Of a stretch of 64,000 nt of DNA, positions 48,173 through 61,751 are shown piece after piece. Made by a program: the position numbers and the translations under genes. The notes beneath the pieces were generated by a model. That model ran no database searches. It had not been told where the DNA came from and worked only from the letters and a program-made list of their open reading frames with translations. How positions within the stretch are numbered: the first letter of the stretch is position 1; each line of letters starts with the position of its first letter. Source of the DNA: Hyphomicrobiales bacterium (lineage in GTDB: Bacteria > Pseudomonadota > Alphaproteobacteria > Rhizobiales > Rhizobiaceae); NCBI GenBank assembly GCA_900466875.1, contig UBNQ01000031.1, positions 1-64,000 of the forward strand. Reading direction: 5' to 3'.

Positions 48173-49420
48173 TTACTGGCCGACAGCCGTTTCCACCGTG
48201 TTGCCGAGCGCCTGCCCGAAGCGGCCGACCTGGTCGTTGTAGGTACGCCGTGTCGTCGGATCGAAGATAGCGATCGGCGTGCTGACGGCGACGCTGGCTG
48301 CGCCGCCGACGGTTTGCGCCGTGCCGAGCGCCACTGCCCCCAGCCTCTCGCCAAGCCCGACATCACTGTCGGTCACGGTCTGGCCTGCAATCAGGCGGTT
48401 ACCGATCAGTTTCACCACTTCCGGGCTCTCGGCAAATTTGCCGTGGTTCAGGCGGTCGCCGCCCTGCAGCTTGGTGAGATCGAGCACGACAATGCCCGAT
48501 TTTTCAAACTCGGTTCGATAAGGCTCGATCGTCGGATCCACCTGGCCCAGGCGGTCGATATTGCCGGAGATGCGGCGCGACAGGCTGAGTGCCCGATCGT
48601 CCTGCGAGACGAAGAGAGTGAAATGCGGACGGTTCTTGCCCAGCTCCGCCATCTGTCTGCCAAACACATCGACGTCGAGATCGGGCGATGCGAGAATGAC
48701 ATTCTTGATCTTCGGGGCGACGCGCCCGTCGCGGATCGCCATCTGGCGCAGCGCCTCGACCGTCAGCCATGAGCCCATCGAATGGGCCATGATCGTTACC
48801 TCGTCGACGCTGTTTTCGGTTGCGAGCCGGCGCAACATCGTCTCCAGCGCATCGCGGGAATAGTTGGTGCTTTCCTTGTCGTAATTATACGCGAAGATGC
48901 TGCCACGCGATGGCCAGGTGAACAGCACCGGTGCCGCATCGGCGCCGCTGTCGTGCACGATCTGGGCAAAGCGGTAGACCGCATCTTCGTAACGGTTGTT
49001 GAAGCCGTGGACGAACACCATCACCCGCCGGCTTTTGGTCAGATGGCCACGAAGCCAGCGCGGGGCATCGGTCGCTTCCATCGGTGTGACGGAAAGGGTG
49101 GCAAATTCCTTCGCAGGATCGGCTGGAAGCTTTTTCGGCCATTGCACCTGGCCCGCTTCACGGGCGCTGTCGGGAGGGATTGACACCGCAATCTCGGTAA
49201 CAGTTGGTTCCTTGCCGCGCTCGCCGGAAAACAGCACGCCCGGCTGCTCGGTCGACTTGCGGGTCGTTGCGACAAGCACATCGACCTTGGAGGCTCCAGG
49301 TGCGGAGGCCCCGGTCGTTGGCACCAGCACGCCTTCAGGCCTTCCGGCGCATCCCGAAAGGGCGGCCAGAACAGAAACGACGGCAATCAGGCGAAACGAA
49401 AATCCGGCACGGTTTTGCAA
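48173..49420 (-). CDS. lipoprotein alpha/beta hydrolase (DUF900 family)
   Basis: A protein of 415 residues with a lipoprotein signal: hydrophobic stretch (about 8-23) and lipobox LSGC with Cys24. The hydrolase domain contains VFVHGFNNRYEDA (oxyanion hole) and the nucleophile elbow AHSMGSW. The C-terminal 90 residues are less structured. TTG 49420 is chosen because GGAG lies 5 to 6 bp before it and the signal peptide begins there. The open frame continues to 49609, but that part translates a RIME-like repeat (PDAKPVPTFAGIA) and is not real. The substrate is unknown. Confidence 0.83.
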   Translation of the reverse strand: MQNRAGFSFRLIAVVSVLAALSGCAGRPEGVLVPTTGASAPGASKVDVLVATTRKSTEQPGVLFSGERGKEPTVTEIAVSIPPDSAREAGQVQWPKKLPADPAKEFATLSVTPMEATDAPRWLRGHLTKSRRVMVFVHGFNNRYEDAVYRFAQIVHDSGADAAPVLFTWPSRGSIFAYNYDKESTNYSRDALETMLRRLATENSVDEVTIMAHSMGSWLTVEALRQMAIRDGRVAPKIKNVILASPDLDVDVFGRQMAELGKNRPHFTLFVSQDDRALSLSRRISGNIDRLGQVDPTIEPYRTEFEKSGIVVLDLTKLQGGDRLNHGKFAESPEVVKLIGNRLIAGQTVTDSDVGLGERLGAVALGTAQTVGGAASVAVSTPIAIFDPTTRRTYNDQVGRFGQALGNTVETAVGQ

Positions 49421-49556
49421 GCGAACTCCAACAGCTTTTCCCGGCACCACAACCTGTGGGTAATGGAGCGCGAAGGTGCCGTCCACTGCTAAACGGGGGA
49501 GATGACGGCGACAAGCCACTCTTGGTTTTAACCTGTCGCCGTGTTGCAACGGCGCT

Positions 49557-49657
49557 GGAGCAATTCCAGCAAAAGTGGGAACCGGTTTTGCGTCCGGAAT
49601 TGCGCTCAAACAAAGAGCTAGAGTATTTCCGCGTTTCTAAGAAAGGCGGAAATACTT
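49557..49657 (+). repeat. RIME-like intergenic repeat, full copy
   Basis: Two palindromes in tandem: GCAATTCC...GGAATTGC, then AGTATTTCCGC (49622-49632) and GCGGAAATACT (49646-49656). It is about 85% identical by eye to the copy at 59821-59921 and matches my memory of the Rhizobium-specific intergenic mosaic element. Confidence 0.8.
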
Positions 49658-52093: not shown

Positions 52094-53203
52094 ATGGCGG
52101 AAAAGGCAGGCGGGGTGCGCAATCTGGAGCGGGAGGATCTACCTTCCGTCGCCGCACTGTTTCAGAAGACGTTCCGCAGCGCGCAGCCTGTCCGCCCCTC
52201 GATGATCCAATATCTGCGAGAGGTGTTTTTCGATCACCCCTGGTATGACGAGGATATCCGCTCCAAGGTTTTCATCGATGCCGGCGGCGGTGTGCAGGGT
52301 TTTATCGGCGTCTTTCCGTCTCGCCTCGAGATAAACGGCCGACCCATCCGGGCGGCCTTTGCAGGCTCGATGATGGTCGATCGGCACGAGCAGAATCCGC
52401 TTGCCGGCGCACGTCTGCTGCGCGCCTTTCTCACCGGACCGCAGGATATTTCGCTGACGGAAACGGCCAATTCGCTGGCGCTCGGCATGTGGCAGAAGCT
52501 CGCTCTGCCGCTGGATATCGCCTACAGCCTCAACTGGCTGCGCGTGTTGCGCCCCACCGGCACGGCCATTCAGGTCGCCGAGCGCGGGTTGAAGGCCGCG
52601 CGTTTTCTGCGCCCCATGGCGTCGCTTTCCGACGGCTTGATCGAGCGCATGGGCGTCAAATCATTTCGAGCGCAGCCGGTCCAGGCAGCTGGGCGGGTGA
52701 ACTTCTGGGACGCATCTCGGGAAGAATTCGCCGAGGCGGTGCTGAAATTGTCCGGGCTTTTTCCCCTGCGTCCGCAATGGGATCGCGCTTCGCTGGACTG
52801 GTTCATGGACCACGCGCAGCAAAAGCGCCAGTTCGGCAAGCCTTCGTGGCGCATTGCCGAGTCTCGCAGCGGCGAACTGGTCGGCTGTTACGTCTATTAT
52901 GGCCGCCCGGGCGGCATCGGTTGGCTGCTGCAGGCCGTCTGCGCTCCCAATGTCGCCGGAGAACTGGTCGACGACCTTTTTGCACATGCCGATGCTTCAG
53001 GCTGCGTCGCGATCCGCGGTGCCGGTCATCCCTGGCTGACGCCCGAACTCATCAGCCGCAAGACGCTGTTTTATGGGCGGGCCTTTTTCGTCGCCCACGC
53101 CAAGGACAAGAGTCTGCTGGAGCCGGTCAGGGCCGGCGAAGCCCTGATCAGCGGTCTAGCGGGAGAAAACTGGATGCGCCTGATCGGCGACAGTTTCGAC
53201 TGA
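52094..53203 (+). CDS. GNAT-like acyltransferase, unknown substrate
   Basis: A 369-residue protein with an N-terminal GNAT-like half (NLEREDLPSVAALFQKTF, then FIGVFPSRLEINGRPIRAAFAGSMMVD) and a second half with similar strand pattern (ELVGCYVYYGRPGGIGWLLQAVCA), so it may be a tandem GNAT or FemAB-like protein. No signal peptide is present. ATG 52094 after a G-rich stretch is preferred over 52064. Its stop is 12 bp from the convergent nadE-like stop, a pairing that suggests a joint pathway with the ACP/ligase genes: acyl-ACP could be its donor. That is inference only. Confidence 0.72.
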   Translation: MAEKAGGVRNLEREDLPSVAALFQKTFRSAQPVRPSMIQYLREVFFDHPWYDEDIRSKVFIDAGGGVQGFIGVFPSRLEINGRPIRAAFAGSMMVDRHEQNPLAGARLLRAFLTGPQDISLTETANSLALGMWQKLALPLDIAYSLNWLRVLRPTGTAIQVAERGLKAARFLRPMASLSDGLIERMGVKSFRAQPVQAAGRVNFWDASREEFAEAVLKLSGLFPLRPQWDRASLDWFMDHAQQKRQFGKPSWRIAESRSGELVGCYVYYGRPGGIGWLLQAVCAPNVAGELVDDLFAHADASGCVAIRGAGHPWLTPELISRKTLFYGRAFFVAHAKDKSLLEPVRAGEALISGLAGENWMRLIGDSFD

Positions 53204-53215
53204 GCCCGGTCAGAC

Positions 53216-54214
53216 TCAGCCGAGCATCGTCGTCGGCTGGGCGTGCAGATAATCCGCAACCTTTCGCTTCGAGGCGATATTGCGCCATACCGCATCCACC
53301 TGATCCGGCGTCAGCGCCGCGGCATCGGCGGTTTCCTCTCGGGAAATGCCGTTATCCAGCGCGTAGAGGCAGATATCCATCCGGTCGTAAGGCAGCGAGA
53401 AATAATATTCGTCCTGCCCCTGCGGAAGCGACCATGTATCGGTTGTCGGCGGGCGGCGGCGGATTTCTTCCGGCACGCCGAGCGCTTCCGCCAGCTGATA
53501 GACCTGGGTCTTGTAAAGATGCGCGATCGGCTTGAAATCGGCCGCGCCATCGCCGTTCTTGACGAAAAAGCCCTGGTCGTATTCCAGCCGGTTCGGCGTG
53601 CCGGCAACGGCAAAGTTCAGCCGGTCGGCATGGTAATATTCCATCTGCTTGCGCGTCCGCTGCTTCATGTTGGCGGCGGCAATCATGCCGAGATAGACGT
53701 CGAGCGGCATACGGTGGCGGCTCTGCTCGCCGGCCGGATTGGCGACCACCAGCCAGGAGATGTTGTAGCCGCGCCCGGTCAGCGCGTCTTCCAGTACTAC
53801 CTTGCAGCCCCAACCTTCACCGAATTCCGGCACAACTTGACGGATGAAGCCGTCTCGGCGGGCATAACAGCCCTGGGCGGCAAGCGACGGGCCGATATCC
53901 TCCAGCACGGTTTCGATGCCGACCGCTTCCGCCAGCGCCTTGCCGAGCCGCAAGCTGTCCGGATCGCTGTCATGTTCAGGCATGAACACGCCGGCCACCT
54001 TGGCCGTGCCGAGCGCACGTGCGCAAAGTGCTGCCGTGACGCTGGAATCGATGCCGCCGGAAAGGCCGAGCACCGCACCGCGCTTGCGCAGGTCCTTCAT
54101 CACGGTCAAGCGCAGCCATTCGCAGATGCGTTCGATCTCGGCTTCCGCGTCGAGCACGAGGCTCTGGGCGGAAAACGCGGCAGTCTTTTTCAATGCGGCG
54201 GAGATATTCGTCAT
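53216..54214 (-). CDS. NAD synthase family protein (ammonia-dependent NadE-like)
   Basis: A 332-residue N-type ATP pyrophosphatase. The PP-loop GLSGGIDSSV is intact at about 51-60 and later regions match NadE (VAGTPNRLEYDQGFFVKNGDGAADFKPIAHLYKTQVYQLAEALG). There is no glutaminase domain, although rhizobia usually have a glutamine-dependent two-domain NadE, so this may be a specialised paralogue. The C-terminus (PPTTDTWSLPQGQDEYYF) departs from the standard PTADLE-type ending. The start overlaps the ligase stop by 4 bp, implying cotranscription with ligase and ACP and a role in their pathway. Confidence 0.8.
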   Translation of the reverse strand: MTNISAALKKTAAFSAQSLVLDAEAEIERICEWLRLTVMKDLRKRGAVLGLSGGIDSSVTAALCARALGTAKVAGVFMPEHDSDPDSLRLGKALAEAVGIETVLEDIGPSLAAQGCYARRDGFIRQVVPEFGEGWGCKVVLEDALTGRGYNISWLVVANPAGEQSRHRMPLDVYLGMIAAANMKQRTRKQMEYYHADRLNFAVAGTPNRLEYDQGFFVKNGDGAADFKPIAHLYKTQVYQLAEALGVPEEIRRRPPTTDTWSLPQGQDEYYFSLPYDRMDICLYALDNGISREETADAAALTPDQVDAVWRNIASKRKVADYLHAQPTTMLG

Positions 54215-55779
54215 GCAGCGTTTTCCTTGATCTCGGGTGCGGGCGGTTCGGAAGTCGATGGCTCTGCGGTCAGTCTGATCTTGCCGGTGCTCGTCTTCGG
54301 CAGCGCGTCGCGAAACTCGACGCTTTTCGGCACCATGTAGTCTTCGAGGTTGAGCGCGCAGTGGCGCAGGATCTCTTTTTCGGAGAGTTCGGCCGATGGC
54401 TCAAGCGCCACATAGGCACGGATCAACTGGCCGAAGACCGGATCGTCGATGCCGGCGACGGCCGCCTCGCGAATGCCGGGCAGGGCGTAAAGCACCCGCT
54501 CCACTTCCTGAGGACTGACCTTCTCACCACGCGTCTTGATGATGTCGTCGCGCCGGCTGACGAAATAGAGAAAGCCGTCTTCGTCGGTCGTGAAAAGGTC
54601 TCCCGTATAAAGCCGACGGCCGTCGGCGATGGGGGCGGCCTTGCCCACGCCTGCCTGATCATCCTGCCAGTAGCCCGTCATCACATGCGGGCCTTCGACC
54701 ACAAGCTCCCCGGTCACGCCGGACGGCACCGGATTGCCCGCCTCATCGATCACATAAGCCCGGCCGCCCGGAATGGCGCGGCCGACGGAAAGCGGCCGAT
54801 GGTCAGCCTCGCCCCAAGGCAGGTAGCTCGCTCTGATACATTCCGTCTGGCCGTACATCAGGAAAAGCCGGGTTTCCGACAACAGCTCGCGCAGGCGCTG
54901 CGTGGTCGAGGGCGGCATGGCGGCCGCGGCACTGGTGATGTAGCGCAGATCGGGCAGGAAACTCGGCGCCAGATCCTGCATGCCGGCGATCACCGCCGCC
55001 ATGGCGGGAACGATCGGAAAACCGGTGGCTCTGGTTTCCACCAGTCGGGCAAGCACCTTGCGCGGAAAGGCGAAGCTCTTCTCCAGCACCACAGTGCCGC
55101 CAACCATAACCATCGTCAGGATCTGCGTGATGCCGTAGCCGAAGGAGATCGGCAGAACGCTCAGCACGATGTCGTCGTCGGTGTTTTCCAGATAGTCGAT
55201 GATCGCGCCGCAGGCGGCAAGCAGGCTGGCATGGCTATGCATCACACCCTTCGGCGTACCGGTCGAGCCGGATGTATGGATCAAAATCGCCAGCGTTTCG
55301 CTGTCCATTTGCCGCGGCAGCTCTATGGTGATGTCCCGAGCGACCATCGCCTCATAGGCCAGCCAACCTTCGACGACATTCACCGGCGTCGCGCCGAATG
55401 ATATCTTGAGAGGAGTGCAGTTCGCAGCGCTCGATGCAGCATCCACCATGCCGCAGAACCGGGCCTGCGTGAAGATCGCAAAAGGTGTCGTGCTGTCGAT
55501 GATGGCGCGCAGCTTGTCCTGCTTGATCGAGGCATGCAGAGGGCAGGGCACGGCGCCCGCTTTCCACGCAGCGAAAAACGCCACCACCGCCTCGGCGGAG
55601 TTTTCGGCGATCATCAGAATCCGGTCGCCCGTATTGATCCCTTGCGCGATCAGGCCGGTGGCCAGATGATCCGACAGCCGGTCCAGTTCAGCATAAGACA
55701 AACGGGTCTCGCCGGCGATCAGCGCCGTTTTCGATCCGAAACGGCCGGCGCTCTGGCGAAGATGATCCTCGATACGCAT
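54211..55779 (-). CDS. acyl-AMP ligase (ANL superfamily), probably loads an ACP
   Basis: A 522-residue adenylate-forming enzyme. Key motifs: IHTSGSTGTPKGVMHSH (phosphate loop), MYGQTECIRASYLP, YTGDLFTTDEDGF and C-terminal PKTSTGKIRL with the catalytic lysine. Because a stand-alone acyl carrier protein gene lies 15 bp upstream in the same operon, the likely reaction is ATP-dependent loading of an acyl or aminoacyl group onto that ACP rather than onto CoA. Related enzymes in exosortase-linked clusters have the same partner. The acid activated is unknown. Confidence 0.85.
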   Translation of the reverse strand: MRIEDHLRQSAGRFGSKTALIAGETRLSYAELDRLSDHLATGLIAQGINTGDRILMIAENSAEAVVAFFAAWKAGAVPCPLHASIKQDKLRAIIDSTTPFAIFTQARFCGMVDAASSAANCTPLKISFGATPVNVVEGWLAYEAMVARDITIELPRQMDSETLAILIHTSGSTGTPKGVMHSHASLLAACGAIIDYLENTDDDIVLSVLPISFGYGITQILTMVMVGGTVVLEKSFAFPRKVLARLVETRATGFPIVPAMAAVIAGMQDLAPSFLPDLRYITSAAAAMPPSTTQRLRELLSETRLFLMYGQTECIRASYLPWGEADHRPLSVGRAIPGGRAYVIDEAGNPVPSGVTGELVVEGPHVMTGYWQDDQAGVGKAAPIADGRRLYTGDLFTTDEDGFLYFVSRRDDIIKTRGEKVSPQEVERVLYALPGIREAAVAGIDDPVFGQLIRAYVALEPSAELSEKEILRHCALNLEDYMVPKSVEFRDALPKTSTGKIRLTAEPSTSEPPAPEIKENAA

Positions 55780-55794
55780 GGCCGATCCGCCGGA

Positions 55795-56055
55795 TCAGGC
55801 CGCTGCAGCCGGCAGCTTCGATGCCAGATAGCGGGTCATGTTGTTGATGCTGTCGAGGTTTTCCGGGACGATGTCTTCATCTGCGATGGAAATGCCGAAG
55901 GTCTGTTCCAGAAACGCAATCACTTCGAGCACGCCGGTGGAATCGATCACGCCGCTTTCCAAAAGAGACTGGTCGTCGTCGAGCTCCGCATCGGCGCGAA
56001 ACAGGAAGTTTTCCGCAATGAATTCCCGCACGGCGGTGTTGAGCTTGTCAGTCAT
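55795..56055 (-). CDS. acyl carrier protein (stand-alone)
   Basis: An 86-residue ACP with the phosphopantetheine serine in VIDSTGVLEVIAFLEQTFG; DST replaces the usual DSL. The helical pattern and acidic composition fit a carrier protein. It is distinct from the fatty-acid AcpP, which normally sits between fabG and fabF. ATG 56055 with GGGGAAGG upstream is chosen rather than 56085. It is the first gene of the ACP-ligase-NadE operon. Confidence 0.88.
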   Translation of the reverse strand: MTDKLNTAVREFIAENFLFRADAELDDDQSLLESGVIDSTGVLEVIAFLEQTFGISIADEDIVPENLDSINNMTRYLASKLPAAAA

Positions 56056-56233
56056 CGAATAAACCTTCCCCAGAGGGTGGCCCATCCAGCGATTTCAACA
56101 CGCGCGGCCACCATTACCCATGGTTTGACCTTGCCGCAAAGACCTGAATCTTTCGCTAAACCTGAATTACCACTTTGACACATTCCCGAAAACGCTCAGC
56201 TCTGGGCGTGATGGAATGCAAAAGCCGGCCACA

Positions 56234-57187
56234 TCAGAGAGCGTTCGAAGGCGTGCCCTTCTGGAAATTCTCGATATGCTCGACGACCTGTGCCCAGAGA
56301 CCCTGCATCGCCTCGTCGCTCGCCCAGGCGACATGCGGGGTGAGGATCACATTCGGCCGGTCGATCACGGTCAGCAGCGGATTGTCCGCGGCCGGCGGTT
56401 CCTTGGTCAGCACGTCGAACCCGGCGCCGCCGATCAGTCCCTCGTCCAGCGCCGTCACCAGATCCGCCTCGTTCACCAGTCCGCCACGTGCGGTATTGAT
56501 GATCAGCGGATGTTTTTTCATTTTGCGGAATTCGTCGATCCCGATCAGATCGCGCGTCTCCGGTTTCAGCGGCATGTGCAGGGTGATGACGTCCGCCTGC
56601 TCGAGCACCGTCTCGAATGGCGTGTAGCCCTCAGTCACCTCGCTTGCCCCCTTGCGGCCGGCAAACAGCACCGTCATGCCCAGCGCCTCGGCGATCCGCG
56701 CCACCGATTTGCCCAATGTCCCGCCGCCGAAAATGCCGATCGTGGAATTGGCCAGATCGCGGATCGGATGGGTGAAGATGCAGAACTGGTTGGCACGCTG
56801 CCATTCGCCGGCAATCACATCCTCACGGAAACCGACGATCGAGCGTCGAAGCGCGAAGATCAGCGCAAACGTATGTTCCGGCACGGTATTGACCGCATAA
56901 CCGCGGATATTCGAGACCACGATGCCGCGCTGCTTGACAAAGGCGAGATCGATCACGTCATAGCCGGTCGCCGCCACCGTGATCATCTTCAGCTTCGGCG
57001 CAGCGGCAATCGATGCTTCGCGCACAGGCGCCTTGTTGGTGATGACGATATCGGCATCGCGGATCCGGTCTGCGACCTCGGCTTCCGGCGTCTTGCCGTA
57101 TTCGACCCATTCATGGGGAAAGCTTGGGCGGGTGATCGTGACCGCCGGACCGATCGTGTCGCGATCGAGGAAAACAATCTTCAGCAT
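56234..57187 (-). CDS. D-isomer 2-hydroxyacid dehydrogenase (glycerate dehydrogenase/hydroxypyruvate reductase-like)
   Basis: An NAD(P)H-dependent dehydrogenase of 317 residues. The dinucleotide loop reads GIFGGGTLGKSVA, catalytic Arg lies in NTARGGLVNE, Glu in the following FDVLTKEPP segment and His in NVILTPHVAW. It resembles glycerate dehydrogenase (HprA). It precedes the ACP gene on the same strand by 178 bp, so it may be either the head of that cassette or separate. The FAD oxidase gene is divergent. Confidence 0.87.
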   Translation of the reverse strand: MLKIVFLDRDTIGPAVTITRPSFPHEWVEYGKTPEAEVADRIRDADIVITNKAPVREASIAAAPKLKMITVAATGYDVIDLAFVKQRGIVVSNIRGYAVNTVPEHTFALIFALRRSIVGFREDVIAGEWQRANQFCIFTHPIRDLANSTIGIFGGGTLGKSVARIAEALGMTVLFAGRKGASEVTEGYTPFETVLEQADVITLHMPLKPETRDLIGIDEFRKMKKHPLIINTARGGLVNEADLVTALDEGLIGGAGFDVLTKEPPAADNPLLTVIDRPNVILTPHVAWASDEAMQGLWAQVVEHIENFQKGTPSNAL

Positions 57188-58585: not shown

Positions 58586-59737
58586 ATGTCGCTTTTTCTT
58601 GGCCTTGCTTCCGGCGTGCTGATTGCTGCCAACGGCATCAGCATCGGTATCGCGATGGGGCGTCTGGCCCGCAACGGCAGCCCGGCGCCCGCACTCACGG
58701 AAAAACCTCCGGTTTCCGTCGTCGTCCCGACTTGCGGCATCGAGAATTTCACCAGTCTCACTTTGGAGCGGGCATTCGATCTCGATTGGCCGGATTACGA
58801 GTTGATCTTCTGCGTCGCCGATGCGCGGGATCCGGTAATTCCGGCCGTGAAGGAAGCCATGGCGCGGCATCCCGGCGTCACAGCAATCCTGCTGATCGGC
58901 GATGACCGGGTCAGCGCCAATCCCAAACTCAACAATTGCGTCAAGGGCTGGCGCGCCGCGGTCAACGACTGGGTAGTGCTGGCCGATTCCAACGTCCTGA
59001 TGCCGCGCGATTACATCGCCCATCTCATGGCCGCGCGGCGCAAAAACACCGGCCTCGTCTGCTCGACTCCGCTCGGTTCCCGCCCGGAAGGTTTCTGGGC
59101 CGAGGTCGAATGCGCGTTTCTCAATTCACAGCAGGCGCGCTGGCAATATGCCGGTGAGGCGGTCGGCCTCGGTTTTGCCCAGGGCAAAAGCATGCTGTGG
59201 TACAAGCCGATGCTGGATGCCGAAGGCGGTATTGCCGCATTGGGCGCCGAAATCGCCGAGGATGCCGCCGCAACCAAGCTGGTGCGTCGCTTGGGCCGCA
59301 AGGTTCATCTTGTCTCGTCTCCTTTCGAACAGCCGCTCGGCCGCCGTGAGCTTGCCCAGATCTGGTCGCGACAGGCCCGCTGGGCGCGCCTGCGCCGGGT
59401 CACGTTCCCGGCCTTCTTCGCGCCGGAAATCCTGCTCGGCTGCCTGCCGCCGCTTGTGCTGGCGCTGGCCGCCGCGGTCCTGTCGACCGGTGACCTGTCA
59501 TTTGCCACGGTCATCCCTGCGGTTCTCGCCGCCGTCTATCTTCCGGAACTCGCCCTCATCCGGGCGAAGAACTGGCGCCTTTCGATCTGGACCCTGCCGG
59601 CCATGCTGGTGCGCGACGTTCTCAGTCCCGCAATCTGGGTCAAAAGCTGGCTGGGCGGCTCGTTCGACTGGCGCGGTAACACGATGACGATCGGCACCGA
59701 GACCAGTGAACTGAGTTCCGCGTCCCCCTCGCATTGA
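58586..59737 (+). CDS. GT21-family glycosyltransferase, ceramide glucosyltransferase-like
   Basis: A 383-residue membrane glycosyltransferase. One helix is at the N-terminus (about 2-24) and two or three near the C-terminus (about 275-345). The GT21 motifs are visible: CVADARD, the metal-site VLADSNVLMP (DxD-like), and RQARWARLRR for the Q/RxxRW motif. Bacterial members in Agrobacterium synthesise glucosylceramide or related glycolipids. ATG 58586 (GGAG 8 bp upstream) is preferred to an upstream GTG 58496 since TM1 follows directly. Confidence 0.86.
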   Translation: MSLFLGLASGVLIAANGISIGIAMGRLARNGSPAPALTEKPPVSVVVPTCGIENFTSLTLERAFDLDWPDYELIFCVADARDPVIPAVKEAMARHPGVTAILLIGDDRVSANPKLNNCVKGWRAAVNDWVVLADSNVLMPRDYIAHLMAARRKNTGLVCSTPLGSRPEGFWAEVECAFLNSQQARWQYAGEAVGLGFAQGKSMLWYKPMLDAEGGIAALGAEIAEDAAATKLVRRLGRKVHLVSSPFEQPLGRRELAQIWSRQARWARLRRVTFPAFFAPEILLGCLPPLVLALAAAVLSTGDLSFATVIPAVLAAVYLPELALIRAKNWRLSIWTLPAMLVRDVLSPAIWVKSWLGGSFDWRGNTMTIGTETSELSSASPSH

Positions 59738-59820
59738 AGCTGGTATTGTCGGCGACATCGCGGCAACCTTTCCATTTGGCCGCGAACCGCTCTATACCTT
59801 GCTCAGCCAGTTGACGGCTT

Positions 59821-59921
59821 GGAGCAATTCCAGCAAAAGTGGGAACCGGTTTTGCGTCCGGAAGTGCGTTAAAACAAAGAGATAGAGCAGTTCGCATTTC
59901 GAAGAAGGACGGAAATGCTCC
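59821..59921 (+). repeat. RIME-like intergenic repeat, full copy
   Basis: Begins GGAGCA and ends TGCTCC (inverted ends) and shares its first 60 bp almost fully with 49557-49657. It separates the GT21 gene from the capsule-type gene. Confidence 0.8.
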
Positions 59922-59933
59922 AAGGCAGGCGCG

Positions 59934-61751
59934 ATGATCGGAGATATAGAGAGGAGAGTGCGGGCAGGCAGGAACCTGCGGACCATGCGCATCCTGCTCG
60001 GCTCAGCCGCCTTTTTCCTTCCGCCCCTTGCCGCACTGAAAAAGCTGTCTGCCCTCGTCTTCGAAGGGCGTATGCTGATCGAATACCATGCCAATCGCCC
60101 GGCGGCGGCGGAAAACCTGTTTGTCCATTACGCGCGCAAAGGGCAGCTCACCTTCTGGGGCGTGTCGACCTTTATCGCAAGAGTGGTTGAGCCCGGCCTC
60201 GCGCGGCGATTGACCGAAATCCTCGACGATCCGCGATTGTCTCCGGGCGCGAGGGTGCTTCTGCGCGCAGCATATATGCGTCACCAGGAAGGCAGGAGCC
60301 GGCCGAAGGAAACGGACGACCCCGACCAACTGCGTTACCACGAACAACTGGCCGAGGACGGGCAGGCATTCATGCAGGCGGAGCCCGAATACCTCGACGC
60401 GACGCTCGCCCTTTCGACCGCTCTTTCCGCCGAGGCCTGCAATCGCGAGGACATTTTTGGCTGTGCTATTCGGCACCTGATCACGCAGCTGGAGCGTATC
60501 GAAACGGATAAAAACCTGGCGCGGGAGCATATGGCCGATGTGGTGACGGCAAGGCTCAGCCTGTTCGATCTCGACGGTGCACGGCATTTCCTGTCCACCC
60601 CCGCCGTGTCCGAGACGAAGAAGGCGCAAAAACTCAGCGCCGAGCTTCATGCCATCCTGGATGAGACCGCGGACTTTCGCCACGCGATCCGCTCCGCCCA
60701 CGAGGATATTTTGGCACGCGCCGCCGGCACGCAGGCCCCGGTCGACGGATTGCCGATCATTCTGTTGCCGGCAGCAGCTTTTCGCCGGAACAAGATCGAC
60801 TATCCGGGCTTCCGCTCGGACATAAGGTTTGTCCTCTCCGGCATCGTCAGGGCGCTCGACAAGCATGGAATATCCTATTGTGTGAGGAGCAGGCTGCGGA
60901 CCCATGGCGTGCGGAACCTGTCGGCACCTTTCTTCGCCTATCACACGGTTTCCGACACGGATTTCGGCCTTCATTTCAAGGAGACTGACAGGCCGTCGCT
61001 GTTCAGCTTCGACCGGCGCGGTTATGCGGGCTGGTCGAAATTCTCCGCCATGACGCTGCCCGAACTGCGCTCCGCCGACGTGACGACCCAGGCCGCCGCC
61101 GACTTCTTCGATCGCGAGAAGCAACGGGTCATCGGTGGCAATCTGTCGAAATACCGGCAGGCGGATGTTTCGGATGTCGAGGAACTGCCGGAGAGATTCA
61201 TCTTCGTGGCACTGCAGCTGATCGGAGATGCCGTCAGCCAGCTGGCCTATCTCGACCTTTTCGACATGGTGGATGAGGTCATCCGCACGGCAGAAACCCA
61301 AGGCTTGTCGGTCGTGATCAAGCGGCACCCGCTATGCACGACCCCGGAGGTCTCGCAATATCTCGGTGAGCTTGGCTCCAGAAATGCTGTCCGCCAGGTC
61401 TATTCGAGCATCCATGCCATCATCCCGAAGGCGCAAGCCGTCTGTGTCATCAATTCCGGCGTGGGCGCGGAAGCACTGCTCCATGAAAAGCCGGTCTATG
61501 TTTTCGGCCGGGCGGATTACATGGCCGGATGTTTCGTCTGCAAAGGCCGCGGCGATTTCGCAGCCCAGTTCGTTCCGGGCAATTCGATGCTCTCGCCGGA
61601 TGAATTGCGGACATTCTGGTATCTGTTGCGCAACAGTTATGCCGTGGACCTGCGCGACAGGGATCGCGCAACGACCGAAATCGAAACACGCGTAATCGGC
61701 CACCTGAAAGCACTTCAGGCAAATGGTCCAAACGTTGGCATAGAACACTGA
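59934..61751 (+). CDS. capsule-type glycosyltransferase (KpsC/KpsS-like domain)
   Basis: A 605-residue protein. The N-terminal 260 residues are helical, with a hydrophobic stretch at about 22-38. The C-terminal part (about 270-590) resembles the KpsC/S beta-Kdo transferase fold: VVIKRHPLCTTPE (near 455) and VINSGVGAEALLHEKPVYVFGRADY (near 505) are the two signature regions. KpsC/S enzymes build the poly-Kdo linker of group 2 capsules. Here no kps or kdo genes are next to it, so a different surface glycan is possible. ATG 59934 follows AAGGCAGG. Confidence 0.75.
   Translation: MIGDIERRVRAGRNLRTMRILLGSAAFFLPPLAALKKLSALVFEGRMLIEYHANRPAAAENLFVHYARKGQLTFWGVSTFIARVVEPGLARRLTEILDDPRLSPGARVLLRAAYMRHQEGRSRPKETDDPDQLRYHEQLAEDGQAFMQAEPEYLDATLALSTALSAEACNREDIFGCAIRHLITQLERIETDKNLAREHMADVVTARLSLFDLDGARHFLSTPAVSETKKAQKLSAELHAILDETADFRHAIRSAHEDILARAAGTQAPVDGLPIILLPAAAFRRNKIDYPGFRSDIRFVLSGIVRALDKHGISYCVRSRLRTHGVRNLSAPFFAYHTVSDTDFGLHFKETDRPSLFSFDRRGYAGWSKFSAMTLPELRSADVTTQAAADFFDREKQRVIGGNLSKYRQADVSDVEELPERFIFVALQLIGDAVSQLAYLDLFDMVDEVIRTAETQGLSVVIKRHPLCTTPEVSQYLGELGSRNAVRQVYSSIHAIIPKAQAVCVINSGVGAEALLHEKPVYVFGRADYMAGCFVCKGRGDFAAQFVPGNSMLSPDELRTFWYLLRNSYAVDLRDRDRATTEIETRVIGHLKALQANGPNVGIEH

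What the first reader, a model, noticed from the sequence alone, without database searches (positions are those of the whole stretch)
52094..57187. ACP / acyl-AMP ligase / NadE-like operon facing a GNAT-like gene: a candidate undescribed biosynthetic cassette
Seen: on the minus strand ACP (56055-55795), ligase (55779-54211) and NadE-like gene (54214-53216) are spaced 15 bp and overlap by 4 bp; a 369-residue GNAT-like gene is convergent with 12 bp between stops; a hydroxyacid dehydrogenase gene lies 178 bp upstream. Known: free ACP plus ANL ligase pairs load non-fatty-acid acyl groups; NadE-type ATP pyrophosphatases use ammonia to attack an adenylated carboxylate. Inference: an acid is loaded on the ACP, and either amidated or activated by the NadE paralogue, then transferred by the GNAT-like protein. 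The ACP carries DST rather than DSL, and the NadE-like protein has no glutaminase domain and an atypical C-terminus, as expected if it has a special substrate. Similar ligase/ACP/acyltransferase groupings occur beside exosortase systems, but no exosortase is seen here.
Basis: partly seen in the sequence, partly recalled or inferred. Interest (0 to 1): 0.72.

Follow-up and report, generated by a model that had tools for sequence, protein, structure and literature searches.

The report
Conserved five-gene amide-and-acyl transfer cassette
A set of genes that travels together across many soil bacteria appears to load an acid onto a carrier protein, turn acid groups into amides with two different enzymes, and attach the product to another molecule, probably a surface polysaccharide; one of these enzymes is a relative of NAD synthetase that seems to have taken on a new job.

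Summary
ACP, AMP-forming ligase and NadE-like gene form one operon (15-bp gap, 4-bp overlap); a GNAT gene is convergent 12 bp away. ACP and ligase lie on the same strand within 6.5 kb of this NadE type in 95 of 95 loci, against 0 of 20 canonical NadE loci. The genome has two other NadE genes, so NAD supply is unlikely to be its role. It is in the same locus in 69 of 70 loci outside the window's clade. In the window's genome it lies on another contig, yet it occurs in exactly the 24 of 121 family genomes with the NadE-like gene; trees indicate a swap from another lineage. The GNAT models as a tandem GNAT. A PrmC-like methyltransferase occurs only in cassette genomes (8 of 24 against 0 of 97). 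Wzx/Wzy genes adjoin in some. Best reading: an ACP-bound acid is amidated and transferred by the GNAT to an amino sugar of a surface polysaccharide. Substrate and product are unknown. The hydroxyacid dehydrogenase is not a member.

The parts
55795..56055 (-). free-standing acyl carrier protein, 86 aa, phosphopantetheine site in the motif IDST
   Evidence: PF00550 E 2.8e-7; DST in 92 of 95 cassette ACPs
54211..55779 (-). AMP-forming acid:ACP ligase (ANL superfamily), 522 aa
   Evidence: PF00501 + PF13193; best NCBIfam match TIGR03098 exosortase-A-associated ligase, 383 bits, below its 592-bit cut-off; near ACP and NadE-like gene in 95 of 95 loci
53216..54214 (-). NadE-like N-type ATP pyrophosphatase / amide ligase, 332 aa, no glutaminase domain, family-specific insert at about residues 113-174
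   Evidence: NF002048 499 bits, cut-off 313; model pLDDT 88.8, Foldseek best hits NH3-dependent NadEs; insert seen against solved NadEs and against the genome's other two NadEs
52094..53203 (+). tandem-GNAT acyltransferase, 369 aa, convergent with the operon
   Evidence: model pLDDT 88.1; Foldseek best hits N-myristoyltransferases, probability 1.00, TM about 0.5; found in 77 of 95 loci and in 22 of 24 cassette genomes at E<=1e-80 against 0 of 97 others
56234..57187 (-). D-2-hydroxyacid dehydrogenase: neighbour, judged NOT part of the cassette
   Evidence: PF02826/PF00389; directly before the ACP only in the window and L054-L056

Best explanation
The window carries the core of a widespread five-protein cassette that makes and transfers an amidated acyl group. 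The ligase adenylates a carboxylic acid (identity unknown) and loads it on the phosphopantetheine of the free ACP. Two ammonia ligases, an AsnB-type enzyme (glutamine-dependent, encoded elsewhere in this genome) and the NadE-like enzyme (no glutaminase), turn carboxylates into carboxamides, most likely on the ACP-bound acid, possibly one of them on the acceptor. The tandem GNAT protein moves the acyl group from the ACP to an amine, most likely an amino sugar of a Wzx/Wzy-type surface polysaccharide precursor. Where present, a truncated PrmC-like enzyme N-methylates the amide. Shown by computation: membership, co-occurrence, folds, conserved motifs, conflicting ancestry of AsnB and NadE. Inferred: order of steps, substrate, acceptor, product.
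For: Operon spacing. ACP+ligase in 95/95 loci against 0/20 canonical NadE loci. AsnB at E<=1e-200 in exactly the 24 of 121 family genomes with the NadE-like gene, although unlinked in two of them (Fisher 7e-26). GNAT 22/24 against 0/97 at E<=1e-80. PrmC-like MTase 8/24 against 0/97, NPPYIS in 22/22 found by motif. Tandem GNAT fold. NadE fold, SGGIDSS loop kept. Another NadE in 20/20 cassette genomes. AsnB and NadE trees conflict (AU p 3e-13 and 5e-4). Polysaccharide link: in the congener AsnB lies directly upstream of Wzx-GNAT2-Wzz-Wzy-deacetylase-GT4, a cluster that adjoins the cassette GNAT in Ensifer L090 and has relatives in Bosea L114; marker genes in 22/70 loci against 0/20 controls; in this genome AsnB is followed by a GT2 51% identical to one in the congener's cluster; three genomes outside the order carry the set near polysaccharide or glycosyltransferase genes.
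Against: No enzyme of the cassette has been assayed. 48 of 70 loci outside the window's clade, and 25 of 25 inside it, have none of the polysaccharide markers within the fetched stretch (about 10 kb a side), and those markers were taken from cassette loci. The same Wzx family also occurs in 5 of 97 family genomes without the cassette. The GNAT was not found in 18 of 95 loci (six of them type B) and in 2 of 24 genomes, both of which have the MTase. Type B cassettes carry another adenylating protein (NRPS-like with thioesterase in L043), which could mean a small-molecule product. ABC ATPases occur in 24 of 70 loci outside the clade and were not resolved. Residues recalled as deamido-NAD ligands are mostly conserved in the NadE-like protein, so a dinucleotide-like substrate is not excluded. 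Co-occurrence counts are not phylogenetically independent.
Confidence: 0.55

Rival explanations
1. The NadE-like protein is an ordinary extra NAD synthetase that happens to sit in an acyl-activation operon.
For: Fold and most catalytic residues are those of NadE; the public model calls it NAD(+) synthase.
Against: Every cassette genome tested has another NadE (20 of 20); the family has its own insert of about 60 residues; ACP and ligase accompany it in 95 of 95 loci.
Confidence: 0.1
2. The cassette makes a diffusible small molecule (amide-bearing secondary metabolite) rather than decorating a polysaccharide.
For: Type B cassettes add an adenylating protein, in L043 with a thioesterase domain, and lack the GNAT; the ligase's best solved relatives are NRPS adenylation domains; no polysaccharide marker in 48 of 70 loci; ABC ATPases in 24 of 70 loci could be exporters, not resolved.
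Against: Among the 20 recurrent families listed, those beyond the cassette that I could annotate are largely polysaccharide genes; genomes outside the order show such genes too.
Confidence: 0.2
3. The cassette acylates a protein or a lipid: the GNAT resembles N-myristoyltransferase, and ACP-ligase-acyltransferase sets make amide lipids such as bacterial ceramides (recalled) or ornithine lipids.
For: Foldseek best hits are N-myristoyltransferases; the ACP's best NCBIfam match is the OlsHI ornithine-lipid ACP, though at 45 bits against a cut-off of 130.
Against: TM-scores of about 0.5 show the double-GNAT build rather than function; no lipid-backbone enzyme was recognised among the 20 families (not all were annotated); two ammonia ligases have no role in those lipids (recalled).
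Confidence: 0.1

Closest known systems
NF002048 / PRK00876 'NAD(+) synthase' subfamily
   Same: The window protein is a member (499 bits, cut-off 313).
   Different: The name implies NAD synthesis; the genomic evidence here points elsewhere.
Exosortase A (XrtA/PEP-CTERM) associated ligase TIGR03098 and amidotransferase TIGR03108
   Same: Closest curated relative of the ligase (383 bits) and, after the general asparagine synthase model, of the AsnB (440 bits).
   Different: Both are below their cut-offs (592 and 817 bits); no exosortase found in 19 of 20 cassette genomes, this one included; NadE-like protein added.
Caulobacter HfsK with deacetylase HfsH (PMC5362036)
   Same: Double-GNAT protein proposed to acylate a polysaccharide, perhaps on amines freed by a deacetylase; the acyl group is left open.
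   Different: No ACP/ligase/AsnB/NadE set is mentioned in the passages and discussion that I read; homology of HfsK to the window GNAT was not tested.
PrmC/HemK glutamine N5-methyltransferase
   Same: The cassette MTase matches TIGR03534 at 166-178 bits (cut-off 199) and keeps NPPY.
   Different: The match begins at profile position 44-51, so the N-terminal part is missing; at family level found only in cassette genomes. Not found in this genome.
Dlt-type loading (D-alanine ligase DltA with carrier DltC)
   Same: Works alike: a free-standing ligase and carrier feed a surface polymer (recalled).
   Different: Different acid and transferase; two ammonia ligases.

Membership tests
NAD synthetase (NadE) | N-type ATP pyrophosphatase fold with SGGxDS loop | tested here: met
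NAD synthetase (NadE) | is the cell's needed NadE | tested here: not met
   two other NadEs in the genome; 20 of 20 cassette genomes have another over the cut-off
NAD synthetase (NadE) | amidates deamido-NAD | not testable with these tools
   most ligand residues as recalled are kept (K219, D226); the His before the C-terminal Lys is not
NF002048 subfamily | score above the curated cut-off of 313 bits | tested here: met
   499 bits
Exosortase A associated module (TIGR03098/TIGR03108) | ligase and amidotransferase above the curated cut-offs | tested here: not met
   383 of 592 bits and 440 of 817 bits
Exosortase A associated module (TIGR03098/TIGR03108) | exosortase (PF09721) in the genome | tested here: not met
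   none at E<=1e-5 in the own genome; 1 of 20 cassette genomes
Carrier-protein loading pair (ANL ligase + free ACP) | both genes close together and co-conserved | tested here: met
   95 of 95 loci
Carrier-protein loading pair (ANL ligase + free ACP) | ligase loads this ACP and not CoA | not testable with these tools
   inference from co-conservation
Tandem-GNAT polysaccharide acyltransferase (HfsK/FemX-like) | two GNAT domains in one chain | tested here: met
   full-length match to double-GNAT N-myristoyltransferases
Tandem-GNAT polysaccharide acyltransferase (HfsK/FemX-like) | sequence homology to HfsK | not tested
   HfsK sequence was not at hand

The most novel reading that the evidence does not exclude
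A widespread, undescribed pathway in which an ACP-tethered acid is amidated by two unrelated ammonia ligases, an AsnB and a NadE branch that has left NAD metabolism, sometimes N-methylated by a PrmC-like enzyme, and then placed on surface polysaccharide by a tandem GNAT, giving bacteria carboxamide or N-methylamide decorations. In the window's lineage the AsnB partner was replaced by a foreign copy working in trans.
Probability: 0.4. Interest if true: 0.75.

Novelty: new variant of a known kind. Interest (0 to 1): 0.62.

Why it matters
If the reading holds, it adds an ammonia ligase with a new substrate, gives a genetically tractable route to carboxamide-bearing surface groups in plant-associated bacteria, and offers a candidate acyl-donor system for double-GNAT enzymes of the HfsK kind, whose acyl group the authors of PMC5362036 left open. 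The strict co-occurrence of an unlinked AsnB also makes a clean epistasis test possible.

Tried and rejected
Hydroxyacid dehydrogenase as a member: rejected. Exosortase link: rejected for this genome. An AsnB next to the operon in the window: not there; it is at G000:C42. Ligase specificity from the A4 motif: inconclusive; the position that in NRPS adenylation domains holds Asp (recalled) is mostly D or G among cassette ligases, G in the window. The amidase gene between GNAT and NadE: seen only in the congener (L050 and L061 are the same record) and L059, treated as an insertion. Literature: ten searches (open-licence PMC papers only) showed no listed paper on the combination; I saw listings only, apart from PMC5362036 (passages and the whole discussion) and PMC1569441 (term search without hits). 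S. meliloti gene names and locus tags that I guessed for led nowhere. Type B loci (second adenylating protein) were described but not resolved. The residues that bind ATP, Mg and deamido-NAD in NadE, and Asp235 of adenylation domains, are recalled, not from a call.
Full report
What is there. The minus-strand operon ACP - ligase - NadE-like has a 15-bp gap and a 4-bp overlap; the GNAT-like gene is convergent, 12 bp between stops. Domains: PF00550; PF00501 + PF13193; PF02540 with NCBIfam NF002048 (499 bits, cut-off 313); GNAT by sequence only at E 0.0059.

Is the NadE-like protein the cell's NAD synthetase? The genome has a two-domain NadE of 557 aa (L140:4618-6291) and a single-domain NadE of 275 aa (L139:5658-6485). 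The order sample held 20 cassette genomes among 297, the own one included; 20 of 20 have another NadE over the TIGR00552 cut-off, two of them only just (65 and 67 bits against 63.65). The cassette protein keeps the P-loop and, as far as I recall the site, the ATP and metal residues, but carries about 60 extra residues (113-174), with several invariant positions in the 37 aligned members, that solved NadEs and the genome's other two lack. AlphaFold gives a NadE fold (pLDDT 88.8; Foldseek best 2e18, TM 0.82 by target length). So it is an ammonia ligase of NadE build with an added element; that its substrate is not deamido-NAD is inference.

Is the cassette real? ACP and ligase are on the same strand within 6.5 kb of the NadE-like gene in 95 of 95. 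In 20 control loci around canonical NadE genes of the same order (two cut short by contig ends), 0 of 20. The ACP motif is DST in 92 of 95. Six more neighbourhoods, three of them from outside the order, also hold ACP and ligase.

The missing partner. In 69 of the 70 loci outside the window's clade an AsnB-type gene lies on the same strand within 6.5 kb; the one miss, L101, is a contig of 3.7 kb that holds a fragment of it. SGGLDS is kept in 69 of 69 and the N-terminal MC[GA] pattern was found in 57 of 69 (the pattern did not fit the rest). In the window's clade (L054-L077 and L079, 25 loci, NadE at least 83% identical) it is not there. The window's genome has it at G000:C42:79759-81732. In 121 genomes of the family, 24 have the NadE-like gene and exactly those 24 have this AsnB at E<=1e-200; two of the other 97 have 39% identical paralogues. 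It is linked in 22 of 24 and unlinked in the window's genome and its congener G295. Maximum-likelihood trees of 29 rows each disagree: the window's NadE groups with Ciceribacter (L078), its AsnB with L084 and the Sinorhizobium type; holding AsnB with L078 is rejected (AU p 3e-13), holding NadE with L084 is rejected (p 5e-4). L078 is a long branch in both trees and the tests were framed after a quick tree. The simplest reading: the lineage lost the native AsnB and keeps a foreign one in trans.

The transferase. The GNAT-like protein models as a double GNAT (pLDDT 88.1); the best 50 Foldseek matches are N-myristoyltransferases, TM about 0.5. It was found in 77 of 95 loci (25 of 25 in the window's clade, 52 of 70 outside); the 18 without it include the six type B loci, and in S. 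meliloti it lies about 10 kb off, so 'not found' is not 'absent'. At family level it is in 22 of 24 cassette genomes at E<=1e-80 against 0 of 97. Three of those 97 have a weaker match (1e-48 to 1e-63), a second subfamily (GNAT2) that sits next to the Wzx gene.

The methyltransferase. 24 of 70 loci outside the clade carry a truncated PrmC/HemK-type methyltransferase (0 of 25 inside); 22 of 22 found by motif keep NPPYIS. At family level it is in 8 of 24 cassette genomes and 0 of 97 others. PrmC methylates a glutamine side-chain amide (established), so an amide made by the cassette is its likely target (inference). It was not found in the window's genome.

Context. In Ensifer L090 a Wzx, GNAT2, Wzz, Wzy, HfsH-like deacetylase and GT4 cluster follows the cassette GNAT and the methyltransferase. 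In the congener G295 the displaced AsnB lies directly upstream of the same kind of cluster. In the window's genome AsnB is followed by a GT2 that is 51% identical to one in that cluster and 45-52% identical to GT2s of eight other cassette loci; a more distant Wzx/Wzz/Wzy set (39-44%) is on a third contig. Any of the markers: 22 of 70 loci outside the clade, 0 of 25 inside, 0 of 20 controls; the markers came from cassette loci, so this tests those families only. The Wzx family is in 6 of 24 cassette genomes and 5 of 97 others: a tendency, not a rule. ABC ATPases, common in these bacteria, occur in 24 of 70 loci and were not followed. Outside the order, L149, L150 and L151 repeat the set; L149 has a Wzy-type ligase upstream, L150 a GNAT gene next to NadE and a polysaccharide deacetylase, L151 a GT4-like gene. 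In S. meliloti pSymB (strain ml47) the cassette is annotated asnB - acyl carrier protein - adenylate-forming enzyme - nadE, with the GNAT (annotated hypothetical), methyltransferase, flippase and GumC genes 10-20 kb on.

Mechanism. Shown: the parts, their joint inheritance, folds and motifs. Inferred: the ligase loads an acid on the ACP; AsnB and NadE-like enzymes amidate; GNAT transfers to an amine; an amino sugar of a Wzx/Wzy polysaccharide is the best-supported acceptor. Why two ammonia ligases are needed is not known: two carboxyls on one acid, one on the acid and one on a uronic sugar, or amide then amidine are all open.

Known kinds. The nearest curated relatives are the exosortase-A-linked ligase and amidotransferase, but both fall under their cut-offs, and an exosortase was found in 1 of 20 cassette genomes. 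HfsK/HfsH of Caulobacter works alike in outline (PMC5362036, passages and discussion read). Ten literature searches listed no paper on this combination; only open-licence papers were searched.

Noticed in passing
window about 49556-49594 and 59820-59858 (minus-strand ORFs 48173-49609 and 59640-59897): Two unrelated ORFs begin with nearly the same translated string (DAKPVPTFAGIAP), and a similar one opens an ORF at L137:13642; this suggests a dispersed intergenic repeat running through ORF starts.
   Followed up: no
L038, L043, L044, L045, L049, L051, L152: A second cassette layout (type B): another adenylating protein (with a thioesterase domain in L043), NadE-like, AsnB, ligase, ACP and PrmC-like methyltransferase; next to sugar transferase and epimerase genes in L043. 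No GNAT found in the six of these that were scanned.
   Followed up: partly
L050:7656-9239 (congener, same record as L061), L059:11039-12595: An amidase-like gene between the GNAT and NadE-like genes, seen only in the congener and one other close relative.
   Followed up: no
L133 (record titled Bacillus subtilis SK6B4): A cassette of the rhizobial type in a record named Bacillus subtilis: probably contamination or mislabelling of the public record.
   Followed up: no
control genome Methanosarcina acetivorans: An archaeon has an NF002048 protein over the curated cut-off; its neighbourhood was not read and would test whether the cassette crosses domains.
   Followed up: no
G353:C2:98958-100875: A second copy of the AsnB, matched in two pieces, beside a second copy of the GNAT in one genome: perhaps a duplicated cassette with a broken gene.
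   Followed up: no
window 59934-61751: 605-aa protein with a C-terminal capsule-synthesis (PF05159) domain, about 4 kb from the operon and kept nearby in L054-L056; possibly another surface-polysaccharide gene.
   Followed up: no
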